Made by a program: the position numbers and the translations under genes
NCBI GenBank assembly: GCA_017626095.1
Contig: JAGAJL010000029.1
Location: 1-45,466, forward strand
Length of the DNA stretch: 45,466 nucleotides
Direction: 5' to 3'
Source: Lachnospiraceae bacterium
GTDB taxonomy: Bacteria; Bacillota; Clostridia; Lachnospirales; Lachnospiraceae
Notes under the pieces: model-generated
The model's database searches: none
Told to the model about the DNA's origin: nothing
Seen by the model: the letters and a program-made list of their open reading frames with translations, nothing else
Shown: positions 1 to 44,361 of the stretch, piece by piece
Numbering within the stretch: the stretch's first letter is position 1
Layout of the letters: the number at the start of each line of letters is the position of its first letter

Positions 1-331
1 CCGCTTCATACTTCGGTTTTCGGCATTTCTAAGCGGCATGCTCACAAAGTATTTATTAAATGCCCGGTTTCAAAACTCAGACTTCGTCTTCAGACAGTTG
101 AAACCGGGCATTATTTTTGTTCGCTTATGCCGCTAAGAAATACCAGAAAACCTCGCTAAATTCCGCGGGCAAAGATATATAATTTTTGTTTGGGCGACTG
201 GCTATGTCACCAAAGTTGCGAATAATAAAAAGTGAGAAACGATGGCAGAGATAAAAGTCTGCATCTAAGGTCAAACCCCCATATATCGCACTTTCGACAC
301 AAATATAGTGGGAACACAAATCCGAAAAGAG
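1..331 (+). repeat. Family A palindromic repeat, copy A1 (left end cut by window)
   Basis: This gene-free stretch is one long imperfect palindrome. The core hairpin (about 58-113) pairs AATGCCCGGTTTCAA with TTGAAACCGGGCATT around an AGAC-TTC-GTCT tip and is followed on the plus strand by a T-rich run. Outside it, left-arm TTCTAAGCGGCAT (about 28-40) pairs with right-arm ATGCCGCTAAGAA, leaving an A.A mismatch. The right arm continues to a terminal motif near 313-331 (AACACAAATCCGAAAAGAG) that recurs in copies A2-A4. Nearly the whole length matches A2 (5470-5953). The outer left arm lies outside the window. The element ends five bases from the dnaJ stop, so it forms the 3' flank of the heat-shock operon. 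No protein-coding gene is credible here. Confidence 0.85.
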
Positions 332-4258: not shown

Positions 4259-5338
4259 CTACATATCCTTTCTGTTTTTTCCGTATAATTCTTCCATCTG
4301 GCTCATCAAAGTATGCATGGTATCCACAACTTTTTCGTAATCCATTCGCTTTGGTCCGATAATACCGATGGTACCTTTCATTCCTTCACCAAGCTCATAG
4401 GTGGCCGTCACCACACTACAGTCCTTCATGGCTTCTACCTGATTTTCATCGCCGATATAAATCTGGATTCCGCTTTTTTCTTCTTTTGATAAAGTATCCT
4501 GCACCAATGTTGAGAGCAGTTGTTTTTCTTCAAATGTATTGATAATTTCACTGGCTCTTTCCTGATCTGCCAATTCCGGATATTTAAAAATATTGTTTGT
4601 TCCGGATGTATATATCTGCAAATCGTCATCAGATTTAATGGAATCGGCTACAGCATCAATCACATCTCCCACAATATCACTGTGGATCCCCGCCTGCTGT
4701 TTTAATCTTGCAATCAGTCCCAGATTGATTTCTTCAATCGGAAGACCGTTTAAATGCGTATTCAACAGTATATTCAGCTTCAAGAGTGTCTCATCATCCA
4801 TTTCCTCGGAAACGTTTAAAATATTGTTTTTGATGATGTTTCCATTTAATACCACCACCGCAACCAGTTGTCTGGCATCCACACGGGAGAGCTGAATAAA
4901 TTTCAACTTATTGCCGCTGCAGCTCGGAGCCGAAATCATAGTCGCATAATTGGTGTTGACCGCAAGTGTTCTGGCAACCTGCTTTAACATGTGGTCCATC
5001 TTTTCTTCTTTTTCAACTAACAGCTCCTTTAGCTCTTCCACTTCTTTGTCGCGAGCCGAAATCCGGGCTTCCATATCGCTCATCATAGTATCTACATATA
5101 AACGATATCCTTTATCGGAAGGAATACGTCCTGCGGAAGTATGTGGCTGTATGATGTAGCCCATCTCTTCCAAATCTGCCATCTCATTGCGGATGGTTGC
5201 AGAACTGAGATTTAAATCGGTGTATTTGGAAATGGTACGACTACCAACCGGTTCTCCGGTTTCTAAATACGTTTTGATGATCGCCTGCAGGATCTTCATC
5301 TTTCTTTCATCAAGTTCCACTCCATCACTTCCTTCCAT
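4259..5338 (-). CDS. hrcA: Heat-inducible transcription repressor HrcA
   Basis: This repressor binds CIRCE operators and needs GroEL for activity in related Firmicutes. The N-terminal winged-helix region shows DERKMKILQAIIKTYLETG, then GSRTISKYTDLNLSSATIRN and the wing GRIPSDKGYRLYVD. The rest is the GAF-like dimerisation domain with the conserved GIIGPKRMDYEKVV near the end. Its 359 residues fit the family. It is the first gene of the operon and starts 20 bases after a perfect CIRCE element, so it represses its own transcription together with grpE, dnaK and dnaJ. Confidence 0.98.
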   Translation of the reverse strand: MEGSDGVELDERKMKILQAIIKTYLETGEPVGSRTISKYTDLNLSSATIRNEMADLEEMGYIIQPHTSAGRIPSDKGYRLYVDTMMSDMEARISARDKEVEELKELLVEKEEKMDHMLKQVARTLAVNTNYATMISAPSCSGNKLKFIQLSRVDARQLVAVVVLNGNIIKNNILNVSEEMDDETLLKLNILLNTHLNGLPIEEINLGLIARLKQQAGIHSDIVGDVIDAVADSIKSDDDLQIYTSGTNNIFKYPELADQERASEIINTFEEKQLLSTLVQDTLSKEEKSGIQIYIGDENQVEAMKDCSVVTATYELGEGMKGTIGIIGPKRMDYEKVVDTMHTLMSQMEELYGKNRKDM

Positions 5339-5357: not shown

Positions 5358-5384
5358 TTAGCACTCATCGAGTTAGAGTGCTAA
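5358..5384. promoter_or_regulatory. CIRCE operator (HrcA binding site)
   Basis: TTAGCACTC-N9-GAGTGCTAA is an exact match to the CIRCE consensus, with both 9-base arms perfect. It lies in the hrcA leader between the predicted promoter and the start codon, the classic site for HrcA repression of this operon. Confidence 0.98.
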
Positions 5385-5401
5385 TATCTTTTCTGTATTC
5401 T

Positions 5402-5469: not shown

Positions 5470-5953
5470 CCTCTTTCGGATTTGTGTTCCTGATATAGAT
5501 TATTATAAAATGCGAATATATGGTTCTTGCAGACCGATTTTGCAGACGCCCTGCCGCGTTTCTCACAAAGTTCGCAATCTTTGCGGGATGGCAGTCGCCC
5601 TTACAGAAATATATATCTTTGCCGCTGCATACTTCGGTTTCCGGCATTTCTAAGCGGCATGCTCACAAAGTATATATTAAATGCCCGGTTTCAAAACTCA
5701 GACTTCGTCTTCAAACAGTTGAAACCGGGCATTATTTTTTGTTCGCTTATGCCGCTAAGAAATGCCAGGAAACCTCGCCAAATTTCGCGGGCAAAGATAT
5801 ATAATTTCTGTTAGGATGAGTGGCTATGTCCCCAAAGTTGCGAATAATAAAAAGTGAGAAACGTAGGCAGAGAATAAAGTCTGCAACTGAGGTCCAAAGA
5901 ACCATATATTCGCATTTTTATTAATAAACCCAGAAACACAAATCCGGAAAAGA
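5470..5953 (+). repeat. Family A palindromic repeat, copy A2 (complete long form)
   Basis: This complete 484-bp nested palindrome fills most of the gap between the hrcA operon start and the DUF6465-type gene. Outer ends pair TCGGATTTGTGTT with AACACAAATCCG (one-base differences). A second shell pairs GCGAATATATGGTTCTT with AAGAACCATATATTCGC. A third joins the GCAGAC/GTCTGC and AGAAATATATATCTTTG regions. The inner shell pairs TAAGCGGCAT with ATGCCGCTAA. The core hairpin (5680-5733) is AATGCCCGGTTTCAA / TTGAAACCGGGCATT with a T7 run on the plus strand. It matches A1 almost throughout. Short translations exist across it but lack coding character. Confidence 0.9.
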
Positions 5954-6005: not shown

Positions 6006-6338
6006 TTAGATAGCAAAACTTCCGGTAATTTCTCCGTTTACTACATAATATGCGCGGCTGTCTTCCGGCTTAACATATAACTCAACACTCTTGAAATCTG
6101 CCGGTTTATTTCCCAAATCATATTTCCATACGTCTTTTGCGATTTTAATCAAATCATCATTGGTATATGATTTTCCGTCAAACTGTAAATGTACAACAGC
6201 TTTTGCTTCTGCTTTTTTCGCAGGTGCCTTTTTTGCAGGTGCAGCCTTCTTAACGGTTTCTTTTTTAACTTCCTCTTTTGCCACTACACTTTCTGCGGTT
6301 TCCGCTTTTACGGTTGCTTTTGCTTTCGTCTCTGCCAT
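6006..6338 (-). CDS. DUF6465-type small protein (unknown function)
   Basis: This 110-residue protein has an Ala/Lys/Glu-rich, probably disordered first half (KKAAPAKKAPAKKAEAK) and a compact C-terminal half. The second half has VHLQFDGKSYTNDDLIKIA, then VELYVKPEDSRAYYVVNG and the terminal EITGSFAI. That half matches my memory of the DUF6465 family found in Lachnospiraceae. I chose the ATG at 6338 because GGAGGAG lies a few bases before it; the upstream in-frame ATG overlaps that ribosome-binding site. The basic head suggests binding to nucleic acid or an acidic partner, which is only a guess. It is monocistronic, with its own terminator. Confidence 0.85.
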   Translation of the reverse strand: MAETKAKATVKAETAESVVAKEEVKKETVKKAAPAKKAPAKKAEAKAVVHLQFDGKSYTNDDLIKIAKDVWKYDLGNKPADFKSVELYVKPEDSRAYYVVNGEITGSFAI

Positions 6339-6513
6339 ATGCCTCTCCTCCTTCATTACACAAAAGATTCTTTTATGAAAAAGTTTATGTACTTTTCTAT
6401 AACAACAAGTTTAACCTAAAACAATAAGCATGTCAAATTATCCGAACATGGTTTTGTCTGATAATCCGCCAAAATTCTAATGATAAACAACACTCGGACA
6501 AAAAGGTTCTTCA

Positions 6514-7362
6514 TCAGCCAGCCATGATGTTGCTAACTGCAAAATATGCAATGACTAAAACACCGAGAACAATCCGATACCAGCCAAATACTTTGAAATC
6601 ATGCTTTTTGATATAATCCATTAAGAAGCGGATAACAAAAACGGATACCACAAATGCAACTATCATGCCGGTCAATAAAATAGCGATTTCCATTCCCGTA
6701 AAATGAAATCCGAATTTGACAATCTTTAACAGACTGGCACCAAACATAACCGGAATTGCTAAAAAGAATGTGAATTCGGCAGCTACTGTTCTGGATACTC
6801 CGATTAACAAAGCGCCTACGATTGTGGCACCGGATCTGGATGTTCCCGGAAAGATTGCTGCAATCAACTGAAACATTCCAATAATAAATGCAGTTTTATA
6901 AGTCAGATTTTTCAACTTGGTGATACTCGTTTTTTTATTACGGTTCACGTTTTCAATGATAATAAACAAAACACCGAATAAAATCAGCATAATCGCAACA
7001 ACCCACGGATTATACAAATACTGATCGATCAGATCATCAAATAGCAAGCCGACAATTGCAGCCGGAATGCATGCCGTTAATATTTTAAACCATAAAATAA
7101 AAACATTTTTTCTGACATAACCATGATGTTCTTCTGCCTTTTTTCCAAGATAAAACGGAAAAATCTTGTTCCAGTATAAAACAACAACCGCCATGATGGC
7201 ACCCAACTGGATGACAACTTCAAACATCGACCAAAACTCCGGTGTGACATCCAACGTCACAAATTCATTTAACAAAATCATATGTCCGGTACTGCTGATA
7301 GGAAGCCACTCCGTAATTCCTTCAACAATACCAAATAAAATCGCTTTCAAAATCTCAATCAT
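6514..7362 (-). CDS. uppP: Undecaprenyl-diphosphatase UppP (BacA)
   Basis: This membrane enzyme recycles undecaprenyl diphosphate to the monophosphate carrier for peptidoglycan and other envelope polymers, and raises bacitracin tolerance. The 282-residue polytopic protein has both family motifs: EGITEWLPISSTGH (14-27) and PGTSRSG (172-178). About eight hydrophobic segments are visible. It lies downstream of the MBOAT/SGNH pair on the same strand, separated by a 114-base gap filled largely by hairpin repeat C1, so it may be only partly co-transcribed. The link to envelope acylation is contextual. Confidence 0.97.
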   Translation of the reverse strand: MIEILKAILFGIVEGITEWLPISSTGHMILLNEFVTLDVTPEFWSMFEVVIQLGAIMAVVVLYWNKIFPFYLGKKAEEHHGYVRKNVFILWFKILTACIPAAIVGLLFDDLIDQYLYNPWVVAIMLILFGVLFIIIENVNRNKKTSITKLKNLTYKTAFIIGMFQLIAAIFPGTSRSGATIVGALLIGVSRTVAAEFTFFLAIPVMFGASLLKIVKFGFHFTGMEIAILLTGMIVAFVVSVFVIRFLMDYIKKHDFKVFGWYRIVLGVLVIAYFAVSNIMAG

Positions 7363-7388
7363 TTTTCATCCTTGTCCTTTTCTTTTTT

Positions 7389-7460
7389 GTGTTTTGCGGG
7401 TCCCAATCTCATACTGCTTCATGCAAGCATGAGCAGTATGACCTTTGGACCCTGGTATCA
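7389..7460 (-). repeat. Family C hairpin repeat, copy C1 (short form)
   Basis: A strong hairpin pairs GGGTCC (from 7398) with GGACCC (to 7452). Inside it TCATACTGCT and AGCAGTATGA pair around a CATGC/GCATG tip. The flanks GCAAAACA and TGGTATC match the ends of the first hairpin in C2 and C3. Relative to C2, the inner stem has changed on both sides (TTTT/AAAA to TGCT/AGCA), so pairing is preserved. Only the first hairpin of the longer C form is present. It sits between the SGNH-like gene and uppP. Confidence 0.8.
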
Positions 7461-23182: not shown

Positions 23183-23197
23183 TCCCTTTTTACACCC

Positions 23198-23502
23198 GTC
23201 GGGCGCTTTGCCCTTGTCGGGATGCGAAACGGAGTGGGACGGGCTTGGACGATATCTGCCGAGTTCGGACTGCACAAATTTTTCTAGCACTTCTAAGAGG
23301 CAAAAAATACAAAGTACCGATTAAATGCCGGATTTCAAACGCAGACCTAAAGGTCTTTGAACGGTGAAATCCGGCATTAGTTTTTGTATTTTTTGCCTCT
23401 AAGAATTGCACGAAAAACTTGCCAAGTAGTCCATACTTCGGCAGATATCGTCCAAGCCCGTCCCACTCCGTTTCGCATCCCGACAAGGGCAAAGCGCCCG
23501 AC
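23198..23502 (+). repeat. Family B palindromic repeat, copy B1 (65-bp perfect arms)
   Basis: This 305-bp inverted repeat lies between converging cyclophilin and amt genes. The outer arms, 23198-23262 and 23438-23502, are perfect reverse complements over 65 bases and GC-rich, unlike the surrounding DNA. Inside, TTCTAAGAGGCAAAAAATAC pairs with GTATTTTTTGCCTCTAAGAA except for one A.A mismatch. The core hairpin pairs AATGCCGGATTTC with GAAATCCGGCATT around AGACC-TAAA-GGTCT. The architecture equals family A with different base pairs. No ORF of interest lies in it. Confidence 0.93.
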
Positions 23503-23522
23503 AACAATAAAAAACAGAACAA

Positions 23523-25584: not shown

Positions 25585-25626
25585 CCAAAAAAATTGTATT
25601 TATATTGATACAATTTATATACGTTT

Positions 25627-25684
25627 CTTTCTTATTATCTTTCTTATTATCTTTCTTATTATCTTTCTTATTATCTTTCTTATT
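25627..25684. repeat. 12-bp tandem repeat (CTTTCTTATTAT)
   Basis: Four exact, adjacent copies of CTTTCTTATTAT (25627-25674) are followed by a partial fifth. They lie about 40 bases upstream of the amt -35 box. Copy number of such perfect tandem repeats often varies by slippage. There is no spacer structure, so this is not a CRISPR. Confidence 0.9.
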
Positions 25685-26049
25685 TTTTCATATTTTTCCC
25701 TTTTCGGATTTATGTTACATGAAAATACATGATTTTAGCATAACTTTGAATTTCACAAAACATGAGAAAGTAGTTAAAAACCTTATAAAAGGGAGGATGC
25801 CGGGTCAACACTTGGTTGCCCGGCATTTATTATGAAAAAGTTTGTATAACATAATTAACACACTGATTAATCATTTATCTTATAGTCTTATTATATGTTA
25901 GGAAAATGACAAAACCATGTTATGTAAATTAAGTTTTTGAAACGAAATTGTAAATAAAATATGAACATCTACCTTTTCGTGCGTTTATCTTTACACATTT
26001 TCTAAGTTTATTGTCTGACACCAAAGGCAAAGTACGAACTTGAAACCCG
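25685..26049. other. Gene-free stretch between amt upstream region and repeat A3
   Basis: No credible gene was found. It holds a possible family A end fragment (CTTTTCGGATTTATGTT, near 25699-25715), an exact 20-base piece of family C (CACAAAACATGAGAAAGTAG, 25754-25773), and a lone 12-bp hairpin with one bulge (25797-25827, ATGCCGGG...CCCGGCAT). About 200 bases of AT-rich DNA without visible structure follow. It reads as a graveyard of repeat fragments. Confidence 0.6.
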
Positions 26050-26282
26050 CTCGGATTTGTGTTCCCAATATATATCTTTTCTGCCGACTTTTACGAGGTT
26101 TTGTGTCTTTCTTAGCGGCATAAGCGAACAAAAATAATGACCGGTTTCAACTGTCTGAAGACGAAGTCTGAGTTTTGAAACCGGTCATTTAATAATAATT
26201 TGTGAGCATGCTGCTTAGAAAGACTAAAAACCGAAGTACGAGGCAGAAAAGATATATATTGGGAACACAAATCCGAAAAGAG
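26050..26282 (-). repeat. Family A palindromic repeat, copy A3 (short form, inverted orientation)
   Basis: This 233-bp nested palindrome has perfect outer arms of 35 bases (26051-26085 and 26242-26276; TCGGATTTGTGTTCCC at the left end). The middle shell pairs AGCGGCAT with ATGCTGCT imperfectly and keeps the TTCTTAG/CTTAGAA-type mismatch. The core (26136-26189) pairs AATGACCGGTTTCAA with TTGAAACCGGTCATT, a G-C to A-T change on both sides relative to A1/A2. It is oriented opposite to A1, A2 and A4, with its T-rich side on the minus strand. It lies between amt and fba. Confidence 0.9.
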
Positions 26283-37321: not shown

Positions 37322-37443
37322 TGAAATTCTCCTTAGAAAGTCTGTCCTTATTATAAATTTTGCATTGTTATAAATCAATACAAACATTTTGAAATTTCTG
37401 TGCTCAGTTTCTGAATTTTCTATAAACTCTCAGAACTGAACAG

Positions 37444-37550
37444 GCAGTTGAAACCGGTCATTGTTTTGTTCGCTCATGCCGCTAAGAAAAACACGAAACC
37501 TCGTAAAAGCCGGCAGACAAAGATATATTTTGGGAACACAAATCCGAAAC
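37444..37550 (+). repeat. Family A half element, copy A4
   Basis: Only the right half of a family A unit is present. It carries the right core strand CAGTTGAAACCGGTCATT, GCTCATGCCGCTAAGAAA, ACGAAACCTCGTAAAAGCC, and the end motif GGGAACACAAATCCGAAA. The core strand has the GGTCATT variant seen in A3. Without a left arm it cannot fold like the others. It lies in the divergent ftsH-pyrG gap, about 65 bases before the pyrG -10. Confidence 0.85.
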
Positions 37551-40757: not shown

Positions 40758-40872
40758 CAAAGTAACTATTAAATGCCGGATTTCAAACGCAGACCTAAAG
40801 GTCTTTGAGCAAAGAAATCCGGCATTATTTTTTTATATTTCTGAAACAAAAAATTGCACGAAAAGATGCCAA
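40753..40872 (+). repeat. Family B repeat, copy B2 (reduced), acting as terminator
   Basis: The core hairpin (40772-40826) pairs AATGCCGGATTTC with GAAATCCGGCATT around AGACC-TAAA-GGTCT and is followed by a T7 run on the plus strand. It is therefore also the intrinsic terminator of pyrG-DUF1846. Left flank CTTAGCAAAGTAACTATTA and right flank AATTGCACGAAAA match B1, but the long outer arms are absent. The element lies between converging genes, as B1 does. Confidence 0.88.
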
Positions 40873-41877: not shown

Positions 41878-42063
41878 TTGATACCATGGTCAAAAGGTCA
41901 TACTTTTCATGCTCGCATGAAAAAGTATGACTTTGGGACCCACAAAACATGAGAAAGTAGCCCGATTAGGGCGGATTTCGAATGTTTTAGGATTGCGAGA
42001 GCACAAAGTGCGTAGCAATCCGTTGGTATCATGGGGTCAAAATACCTTTTGACCCCAACATCA
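41878..42063 (+). repeat. Family C repeat, copy C2 (long form, three hairpins)
   Basis: This gap between aldose epimerase and HD genes holds three hairpins in a row. Hairpin 1 (41888-41940) pairs GGTC with GACC and GTCATACTTTT with AAAAGTATGAC. Hairpin 2 (41990-42021) pairs GGATTGC with GCAATCC. Hairpin 3 (42033-42056) pairs GGGGTCAAAA with TTTTGACCCC perfectly. GATACCA at the left (41880) is mirrored by TGGTATC (42024-42030). C3 is the same unit inverted. Short translations across the unit (such as PTDCYALCALAILKHSKSAL) recur in both copies but reflect repeat sequence, not a gene. Confidence 0.88.
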
Positions 42064-44176: not shown

Positions 44177-44361
44177 TGATGTTGGGTCCAAAAGGTATTT
44201 TGCCCCCATGATACCAACGGATTGCTACGCACTTTGTGCTCTCGCAATCCTAAAGCATTCGAAATCCGCCCTAATCGGGCTACTTTCTCATGTTTTGCGT
44301 GTCCTAAAGTCATGCTTTTTCATGCAAGCATAAAAAGTATGACCTTTTGACCTGGTATCAT
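44177..44361 (-). repeat. Family C repeat, copy C3 (long form, inverted relative to C2)
   Basis: This unit is the reverse complement of C2 over its whole length, with scattered differences. It contains the same three hairpins (GGATTGC/GCAATCC near 44219-44250 and GTCATGC/GCATAAA-type pairing near 44310-44343) and the same ends (TGATGTTGGG and TGGTATCA). Its hairpin nearest 44190 is less perfect than in C2. Together with C2 it brackets a 2.1-kb block of three genes. The remainder of the 363-base gap holds the terminator at 44412-44433. Confidence 0.88.

What the first reader, a model, noticed from the sequence alone, without database searches (positions are those of the whole stretch)
5470..5953. 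A 484-bp nested palindrome with at least four concentric arm shells (family A, long form)
A2 folds from end to end: outer TCGGATTTGTGTT/AACACAAATCCG, then GCGAATATATGGTTCTT, then GCAGAC and AGAAATATATATC segments, then the GCGGCAT shell, then a 15-bp core hairpin. The copy at 1-331 matches it nearly throughout, including unpaired bases, so the whole length is kept and not just the hairpin. Known interspersed bacterial palindromes (REP, ERIC, BOX, RUP) are shorter. No transposase or coding capacity is visible. It may be a non-autonomous mobile element or a structured RNA.
Basis: seen in the sequence. Interest (0 to 1): 0.72.

Follow-up and report, generated by a model that had tools for sequence, protein, structure and literature searches.

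The report
Self-copying giant hairpin repeats in bacteria
A 484-base DNA hairpin belongs to a family of more than a hundred related hairpins scattered between the genes of closely related gut bacteria; it looks like a small hitch-hiking transposon whose two arms seem to overwrite each other, so that the hairpin shape is kept while its sequence, size and the direction of its middle change.

Summary
In detail: 5470-5953 folds end to end (-231 kcal/mol, z -21). It is the long form of an interspersed family with a 224-228 bp short form (26051-26276). A covariance model gives 138, 126 and 130 matches in three sibling genomes (capped search, not deduplicated); six other genomes of the genus give 0 or 1. 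Copy A1 is cut only by the contig edge. Copies lie close behind gene ends (median 17 nt). Two exact empty sites show a 9-bp target duplication: MITE-like, but no transposase was found. What stands out is behaviour at shared sites: the core is inverted in 26 of 78 orthologous copy pairs (17 of 43 sites); forms swap at a fixed site (484 vs 227 bp here); paired positions change together far above chance (48 vs 5.2 expected), transversions included. That fits replication template switching between arms, a known process, plus exchange between copies. A G-U bias on one strand leaves RNA-level selection open. Verdict: new variant of a known kind (MITE-like palindromic repeat). The arm and core turnover is the interesting part; it rests on draft, probably metagenome, assemblies and needs long-read confirmation.

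The parts
5470..5953 (.). long-form element (target): concentric hairpin between the DUF6465 gene (6006-6356, -) and hrcA (4259-5338, -)
   Evidence: fold and self-complementarity; same site holds a 98% identical long form in G008 and a 227-bp short form in G002; flanking genes by Pfam
5476..5490 (+). left terminal inverted repeat TCGGATTTGTGTTCC
   Evidence: pattern hit, 0 mismatches
5933..5947 (+). right terminal inverted repeat GAAACACAAATCCGG
   Evidence: pattern hit, 2 mismatches
5512..5607 (.). left long-form arm (from GCGAATATATGG), absent from short forms; right counterpart about 5804-5915
   Evidence: comparison by eye of long and short copies
5608..5803 (.). core shared by long and short forms
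   Evidence: BLASTN alignment of the short form, 85%
5680..5733 (.). apical hairpin AATGCCCGGTTTCAA ... TTGAAACCGGGCATT with a highly conserved loop
   Evidence: conservation and pairs
1..331 (.). second long-form copy (A1), cut by the contig start; left part on contig C18:1-267
26051..26276 (.). complete short-form copy, 35-bp perfect outer arms
37441..37547 (.). half copy of the short form with one terminal repeat
23187..23513 (.). related hairpin (family B): core related to family A, different outer stem; few copies
40758..40864 (+). second, partial family-B copy

Best explanation
This is one copy of a MITE-like, non-coding DNA element family carried by three sibling Lachnospiraceae species. 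Copies inserted into A+T-rich DNA near gene ends with a 9-bp target duplication, presumably through a transposase supplied in trans (inferred, not found), and at least 43 insertions are old enough to be shared between siblings. At each site DNA copying between the two arms (template switching on the hairpin during replication) keeps the arms complementary and flips the core between them; exchange between dispersed copies swaps short and long forms at a fixed site. Shown: multi-copy family, terminal repeats, two exact empty sites, joint changes of paired bases, core inversions, form swaps (all in assembled sequence). Inferred: the transposase, template switching as the agent, exchange between copies as the source of form swaps.
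For: Copy number: 69 BLAST clusters in the held parts of the own genome, of which I set apart two family-B pieces and one doubtful one; model matches 138, 126, 130 in G000, G002, G008, only 150 candidates scored in each, not deduplicated. Terminal repeat: 88 hits with up to 2 mismatches against 2 for the reversed control. Empty sites: G000:C46:34326 vs G008:C11 (ATATTTTAT on both sides) and G002:C2:121906 vs G000:C41 (ATTTTTAAT on both sides). Placement: 62 convergent, 66 tandem, 19 divergent of 147 copies; median 17 nt to 3' gene ends (n=190), 100 nt to 5' starts (n=104). Core inverted in 26 of 78 orthologous pairs, 17 of 43 sites; without fragments 23 of 69 pairs, 15 of 36 sites; median flank identity 93.5-94.2%. 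Core type differs firmly in 6 of 69 pairs, four sites, the target among them. Paired positions: 48 double changes vs 5.2 expected inside elements, 68 vs 9.8 with 30-nt flanks. One pair per site: 7 of 22 pair-to-pair double changes are transversions, against 24 of 100 single changes, so doubles look like copied singles. Family B: at one site G000 and G006 share core and flank while their outer stems are largely unlike and each is well paired. Arm homogenisation and spacer inversion by template switching: PMC8604942 (passages seen), PMC8794818 (abstract and start of introduction).
Against: No transposase or autonomous partner: in the contexts of lone terminal-repeat hits that I read (not every hit) there were remnants or apparent chance hits. 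Of the 29 site comparisons only two are clean empty sites; in the others the partner still holds an element or a remnant, or differs in ways I could not resolve. The genome-wide duplication signal over 39 sites is weak (excess 0.63 matches of 9; p 0.002 at the best of 100 offset pairs, uncorrected); a third absence gives only a degenerate duplication. Single transitions are biased to G-U on the short-form strand (53 vs 23, one pair per site), which plain arm copying does not predict. No reads were available; G002 and G008 appear to be metagenome assemblies.
Confidence: 0.6

Rival explanations
1. A structured RNA (terminator-like, 3'-end or independent small RNA) under selection for pairing; joint changes come from selection, not from arm copying.
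For: Covariation in 29 short forms: 31 of 80 pairs with changes on both sides against 9.9 in shuffles; G-U over A-C bias on one strand (68 vs 34; 53 vs 23); short-form strand folds better in 48 of 57 own-genome copies; conserved apical loop; position behind genes. At C24:76190 the element-free G008 allele carries a terminator-like hairpin instead (seen by eye).
Against: Double changes have about the same transversion share as single ones (7 of 22 vs 24 of 100); no orientation bias in tandem gaps, 34 vs 32; core inverted in a third of orthologous pairs; lengths from about 190 to 484 bp; no Rfam match over the element reaches a gathering score; found in few species.
Confidence: 0.22
2. Assembly artefact: palindromic, multi-copy sequence was put together wrongly, giving false inversions and form swaps.
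For: Ten contig ends of the own genome lie in copies; contigs C18 and C48 share 120 end bases inside the element; G002 and G008 correspond to records titled MAG, and the own genome (55 contigs, 86.6% complete) is probably one too.
Against: Flanks on both sides are orthologous at the compared sites, so copies are not joins of different loci; the longest perfect arm has median 21 bp and maximum 47 bp over 142 copies, well under 120 bases, so arms alone should not confuse the assembly; 52 of 78 pairs agree in orientation.
Confidence: 0.12
3. Programmed inversion: a site-specific recombinase flips the core as a switch.
For: Inverted cores at 17 of 43 sites.
Against: Joint arm changes and form swaps are not explained. 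Inversion breakpoints were not mapped and no recombinase was looked for, so it is untested.
Confidence: 0.05

Closest known systems
Bacterial MITEs and small mobile palindromes (Correia/NEMIS, RUP, ERIC, YPAL/RU-2; review PMC2229807, passages seen)
   Same: Non-coding, intergenic, terminal inverted repeats, target duplication, about a hundred copies (RUP: 107 bp, 108 copies in that review).
   Different: That review speaks of units under 200 bp, most with a TA end motif; here 226 and up to 484 bp, other ends, concentric shells, and core inversion and form swapping at fixed sites. Sequence comparison with those elements was not done.
Rfam RF01699 Clostridiales-1 RNA
   Same: Also an interspersed, highly paired repeat in these species (46, 115, 15 and 37 matches at E <= 0.001 in G000, G002, G006, G008, some under the cut-off).
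   Different: The target does not match it.
Quasipalindrome template-switch mutation (PMC8604942 passages, PMC8794818 abstract and start of introduction)
   Same: Arm homogenisation and spacer inversion are the outcomes described there.
   Different: What I saw there concerns short repeats in yeast genes and stems of RNA genes; here hairpins of about 190-484 bp at many sites of a bacterial genome.

Membership tests
MITE (non-autonomous DNA transposon) | No coding capacity | tested here: met
   ORFs of 70 aa or more over it are 91, 94 and 95 aa; none has a Pfam match
MITE (non-autonomous DNA transposon) | Terminal inverted repeats | tested here: met
   GGAACACAAATCCGA, 88 hits vs 2 control; 39 sites with both ends at up to 4 mismatches each
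MITE (non-autonomous DNA transposon) | Target-site duplication at precise insertions | tested here: met
   9 bp at two empty sites, degenerate at a third; genome-wide signal weak
MITE (non-autonomous DNA transposon) | High copy number | tested here: met
   138, 126 and 130 model matches, not deduplicated
MITE (non-autonomous DNA transposon) | Autonomous relative with the same ends | tested here: inconclusive
   None in the stretches read; a similar end CCCTTTTCGGAATTGTGTA recurs in other genera but no transposase was tied to it
REP, ERIC, BOX, RUP | Sequence homology to these repeats | not tested
   No reference sequences compared
Clostridiales-1 RNA (RF01699) | Score over Rfam gathering cut-off | tested here: not met
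   No match at 5470-5953
Any RNA family of Rfam 15 | Gathering match over the element | tested here: not met
   Best is a microRNA precursor model (MIR6224) at 33.4 bits, cut-off 171
Intrinsic terminator | G+C-rich stem followed directly by a T run | tested here: inconclusive

The most novel reading that the evidence does not exclude
A class of genomic repeat in which palindromy itself, not sequence, is the inherited character: arms are rewritten from each other so often that at one site the core stays while most of the outer stem is replaced on both sides (family B, G000 vs G006), cores flip within the divergence of sibling species, and forms are swapped like cassettes between sites.
Probability: 0.4. 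Interest if true: 0.75.

Novelty: new variant of a known kind. Interest (0 to 1): 0.58.

Why it matters
Compensatory base changes are usually read as proof of a selected RNA structure. Here a large family of hairpins, with 43 sites found so far to be shared by sibling species, gives a natural experiment in which paired changes seem to arise largely by copying between arms. It would let the rates of arm copying, core inversion and exchange between copies be measured, and it warns against calling such repeats functional RNAs from covariation alone; Rfam's Clostridiales-1 'sRNA' is also an interspersed repeat in these genomes.

Tried and rejected
Autonomous element with a 4-kb cargo at G000:C15:17799-22090: two half copies with ordinary-looking genes between them, no transposase recognised by eye. 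Contig ends C26/C27 as halves of an insertion sequence: only a small remnant hairpin. Phage and plasmid records: no BLASTN match to the long form; viral contigs were searched only for one exact 20-base end pattern, no match. A1 site in G002 and G008 as an empty site: rejected, both keep what look like arm remnants, so deletion. Intrinsic terminator scan: uninformative for long loops. Copy-specific outer stems as captured host flank: at C33 and C37 they look by eye like diverged shells. Literature: eight searches (two of them on template switching) listed no paper that I recognised, from titles and abstract starts, as describing this family; only open-licence papers are held. PMC2864571 passages only list Clostridiales-1 in a table. 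A mistake of mine: the labels of loci L325-L332 are shifted by one place because one requested contig was shorter than asked; the two empty sites used involve L318 and L323, which are labelled rightly.

Full report
Observation. The element at 5470-5953 pairs end to end, MFE -231.3 kcal/mol, z -21.3, none of 100 shuffles as good, and aligns to its own reverse complement at 70% over 5471-5952. It lies between a DUF6465 gene and hrcA (Pfam); a terminator-like hairpin for the DUF6465 gene is at 5985-5958. Three ORFs of 91-95 aa overlap it; none has a Pfam match.

The family. The window is contig C48 of a 2.74-Mb assembly. A search with the long form gave 84 alignments from 40 scored of 139 candidates; with the short form 58 from 40 of 129. 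In the own-genome stretches held then, clustering gave 69 places (two in the window belong to family B and one is doubtful). A covariance model built from 17 cores gave 138, 126 and 130 matches at E <= 0.001 in G000, G002 and G008, with 150 candidates scored in each; the counts may be too low for that reason and were not deduplicated. In the six other genomes of the genus it gave none in four and one each in G004 and G006. The BLASTN match in G006 is a family-B hairpin and that in G004 is 24 nt. With BLASTN of the short form, 5 of 299 family genomes had a match, only two candidates being scored per genome: G000, G008 and three matches of 24-35 nt. Kin by inference: G002 has the same places and scores as G009, the genome of L098 (JAFOEY010000027, titled a cattle-colon MAG), and G008:C12 has the contig length of L099 (CAMEJJ010000012).

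Anatomy. Short forms are 220-228 bp as aligned: TCGGATTTGTGTTCCC AATATATATCTTTG, then the core. Long forms align over about 395-484 bp and carry roughly 95-120 more bases per arm between the terminal repeat and the ATATATATC segment; intermediate copies of about 190-310 bp carry part of these arms. Two core types go mostly with short/intermediate and long forms: among 142 copies of at least 180 bp, long-type 52, short-type 88, undecided 2; 26 fragments were set aside. Ten contig ends of G000 fall in copies, and the break between C18 and C48 cuts A1.

Insertion. One search compared 29 site pairs where I had predicted an orthologous place. Two are clean empty sites: G000:C46:34326 is absent from G008:C11, with ATATTTTAT on both sides; G002:C2:121906 is absent from G000:C41, with ATTTTTAAT on both sides. 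Both put the ends at TCCCTTTTCGG-type sequence. In the others the partner holds an element or a remnant, or differs in ways I could not resolve; at C24:76190 the element-free G008 allele has a terminator-like hairpin instead (by eye). A further absence, G000:C11:10501 vs G008, fits a duplication only with mismatches. Over 39 sites with both terminal repeats, flanking 9-mers match a little better than permuted ones (excess 0.63 of 9; p 0.002 at the best of 100 offset pairs, not corrected). The A1 site in G002 and G008 keeps arm remnants. Copies lie near gene ends: 62 convergent, 66 tandem, 19 divergent of 147 copies of at least 100 bp with 500 nt on both sides, orthologues included, genes called by a simple script, 3 copies flagged inside an ORF; background gaps, which include element-bearing ones, were 77, 250 and 62.

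Behaviour at shared sites. From 168 clusters at E < 1e-8 in held stretches of G000, G002 and G008 I matched flanks and obtained 78 orthologous copy pairs in 43 sites, 17 of them in all three genomes; four orthologous intervals held no element. Copies without a partner were mostly not tested for absence, since only stretches around copies were held. Median flank identity is 93.5-94.2%. The core is inverted relative to the flanks in 26 of 78 pairs, 17 of 43 sites; without fragments 23 of 69 pairs, 15 of 36 sites. At the target site G000 and G008 hold the long form, G002 a short form with short-type core in the same orientation. Core type was scored different in 9 of 69 pairs; two of these involve an undecided copy and one a copy with a deleted core, leaving six firm pairs at four sites. 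At C24:60838, G008 has a short-type left arm and a long-type right arm (by eye). The orthologue is the best-matching core of the other genome in 39 of 69 pairs, ties counted, which fits exchange between copies.

Joint change of arms. Across 29 short forms, 31 of 80 pairs have changes on both sides (shuffle mean 9.9) and 98.3% of cells pair; slid controls pair at 25-44% (the rows are related and the structure was derived from them, so these are not probabilities). Between same-orientation orthologues of like length, fold-based counting gave 47 double-changed pairs against 5.7 expected in 32 copy pairs, 39 of the 47 still paired, with single changes 71 pair-keeping and 113 breaking. Fold-free counting gave 48 against 5.2 inside elements and 68 against 9.8 with 30-nt flanks, in 38 copy pairs. 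With one pair per site (23 sites): 22 pair-to-pair double changes, 7 transversions; 100 single changes from a pair, 24 transversions. A stepwise route through G-U should make transversion doubles rare, so copying between arms is the better reading; the numbers are small. At C33:14979 three genomes have three different but self-complementary outer stems. In family B, G000 and G006 share core and flank with mostly unlike, well-paired outer stems, and G002 and G008 carry the hairpin inverted to the flanks.

Against a pure copying view. Single transitions leave A-C more often than G-T on the long-form strand, 81 vs 46 in all pairs and 53 vs 23 one pair per site, i.e. G-U on the short-form strand; over all copies 283 vs 129, and 156 vs 104 in rarely affected columns. 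The short-form strand folds more stably in 48 of 57 own-genome copies. This suggests some RNA-level constraint or a strand-biased mutation process; I cannot tell which. The core is not oriented with transcription in tandem gaps (34 vs 32).

Known kinds. PMC2229807 (passages) describes bacterial MITE-like repeats under 200 bp, most with terminal repeats and target duplications. PMC8604942 (passages) and PMC8794818 (abstract and start of introduction) describe template switching as a cause of arm homogenisation, spacer inversion and hairpin maintenance. The family here is like a MITE in anatomy and like template-switched quasipalindromes in evolution; no transposase was found, so membership in a named transposon family is not claimed.

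Limits. No reads were available, and the genomes are draft, probably metagenome, assemblies. Neighbour genes were called by a simple script. Several alignments were judged by eye. labels for L325-L332 are shifted by one. With three genomes most changes are not polarised. On checking, confidence in the best explanation was lowered from 0.62 to 0.60 and the odds of two rivals raised slightly, because only 2 of 29 compared sites are clean empty sites and the firm core-type swaps number six pairs, not nine.

Noticed in passing
window 41879-42031 (+) and 44209-44360 (-); also 7326-7460: Rfam Clostridiales-1 'sRNA' (RF01699) is an interspersed repeat here: 46, 115, 15 and 37 matches at E <= 0.001 in G000, G002, G006, G008, none in the other five genomes of the genus, a number of them at contig ends. 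The two window copies lie in a 190-nt inverted pair around about 2 kb.
   Followed up: partly
window 23187-23513; L369: Family B hairpin: same core and site as in G006 but largely unlike outer stems, and inverted in G002 and G008.
   Followed up: partly
L382, L385, L386, L364 and other hits: CCCTTTTCGGAATTGTGTA or a close variant recurs in several other genera of the family, some near contig ends; possibly the end of a related insertion sequence. No second end within the four loci read.
   Followed up: partly
G000:C18:355241, C51:73930, C26:27219, C27:12044: Tiny remnants in which little more than the terminal repeats is left as a short hairpin.
   Followed up: no
G008 allele of site G000:C24:76190 (L326): Where G000 and G002 carry an element, G008 has a terminator-like hairpin AATCAAGGCAG...CTGCCTTGATT instead (by eye).
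   Followed up: no
window 25620-25689: 12-base tandem repeat TTATTATCTTTC.
   Followed up: no
window 5360-5386: Inverted repeat TTAGCACTC...GAGTGCTAA upstream of hrcA, resembling the CIRCE operator (recalled).
   Followed up: no
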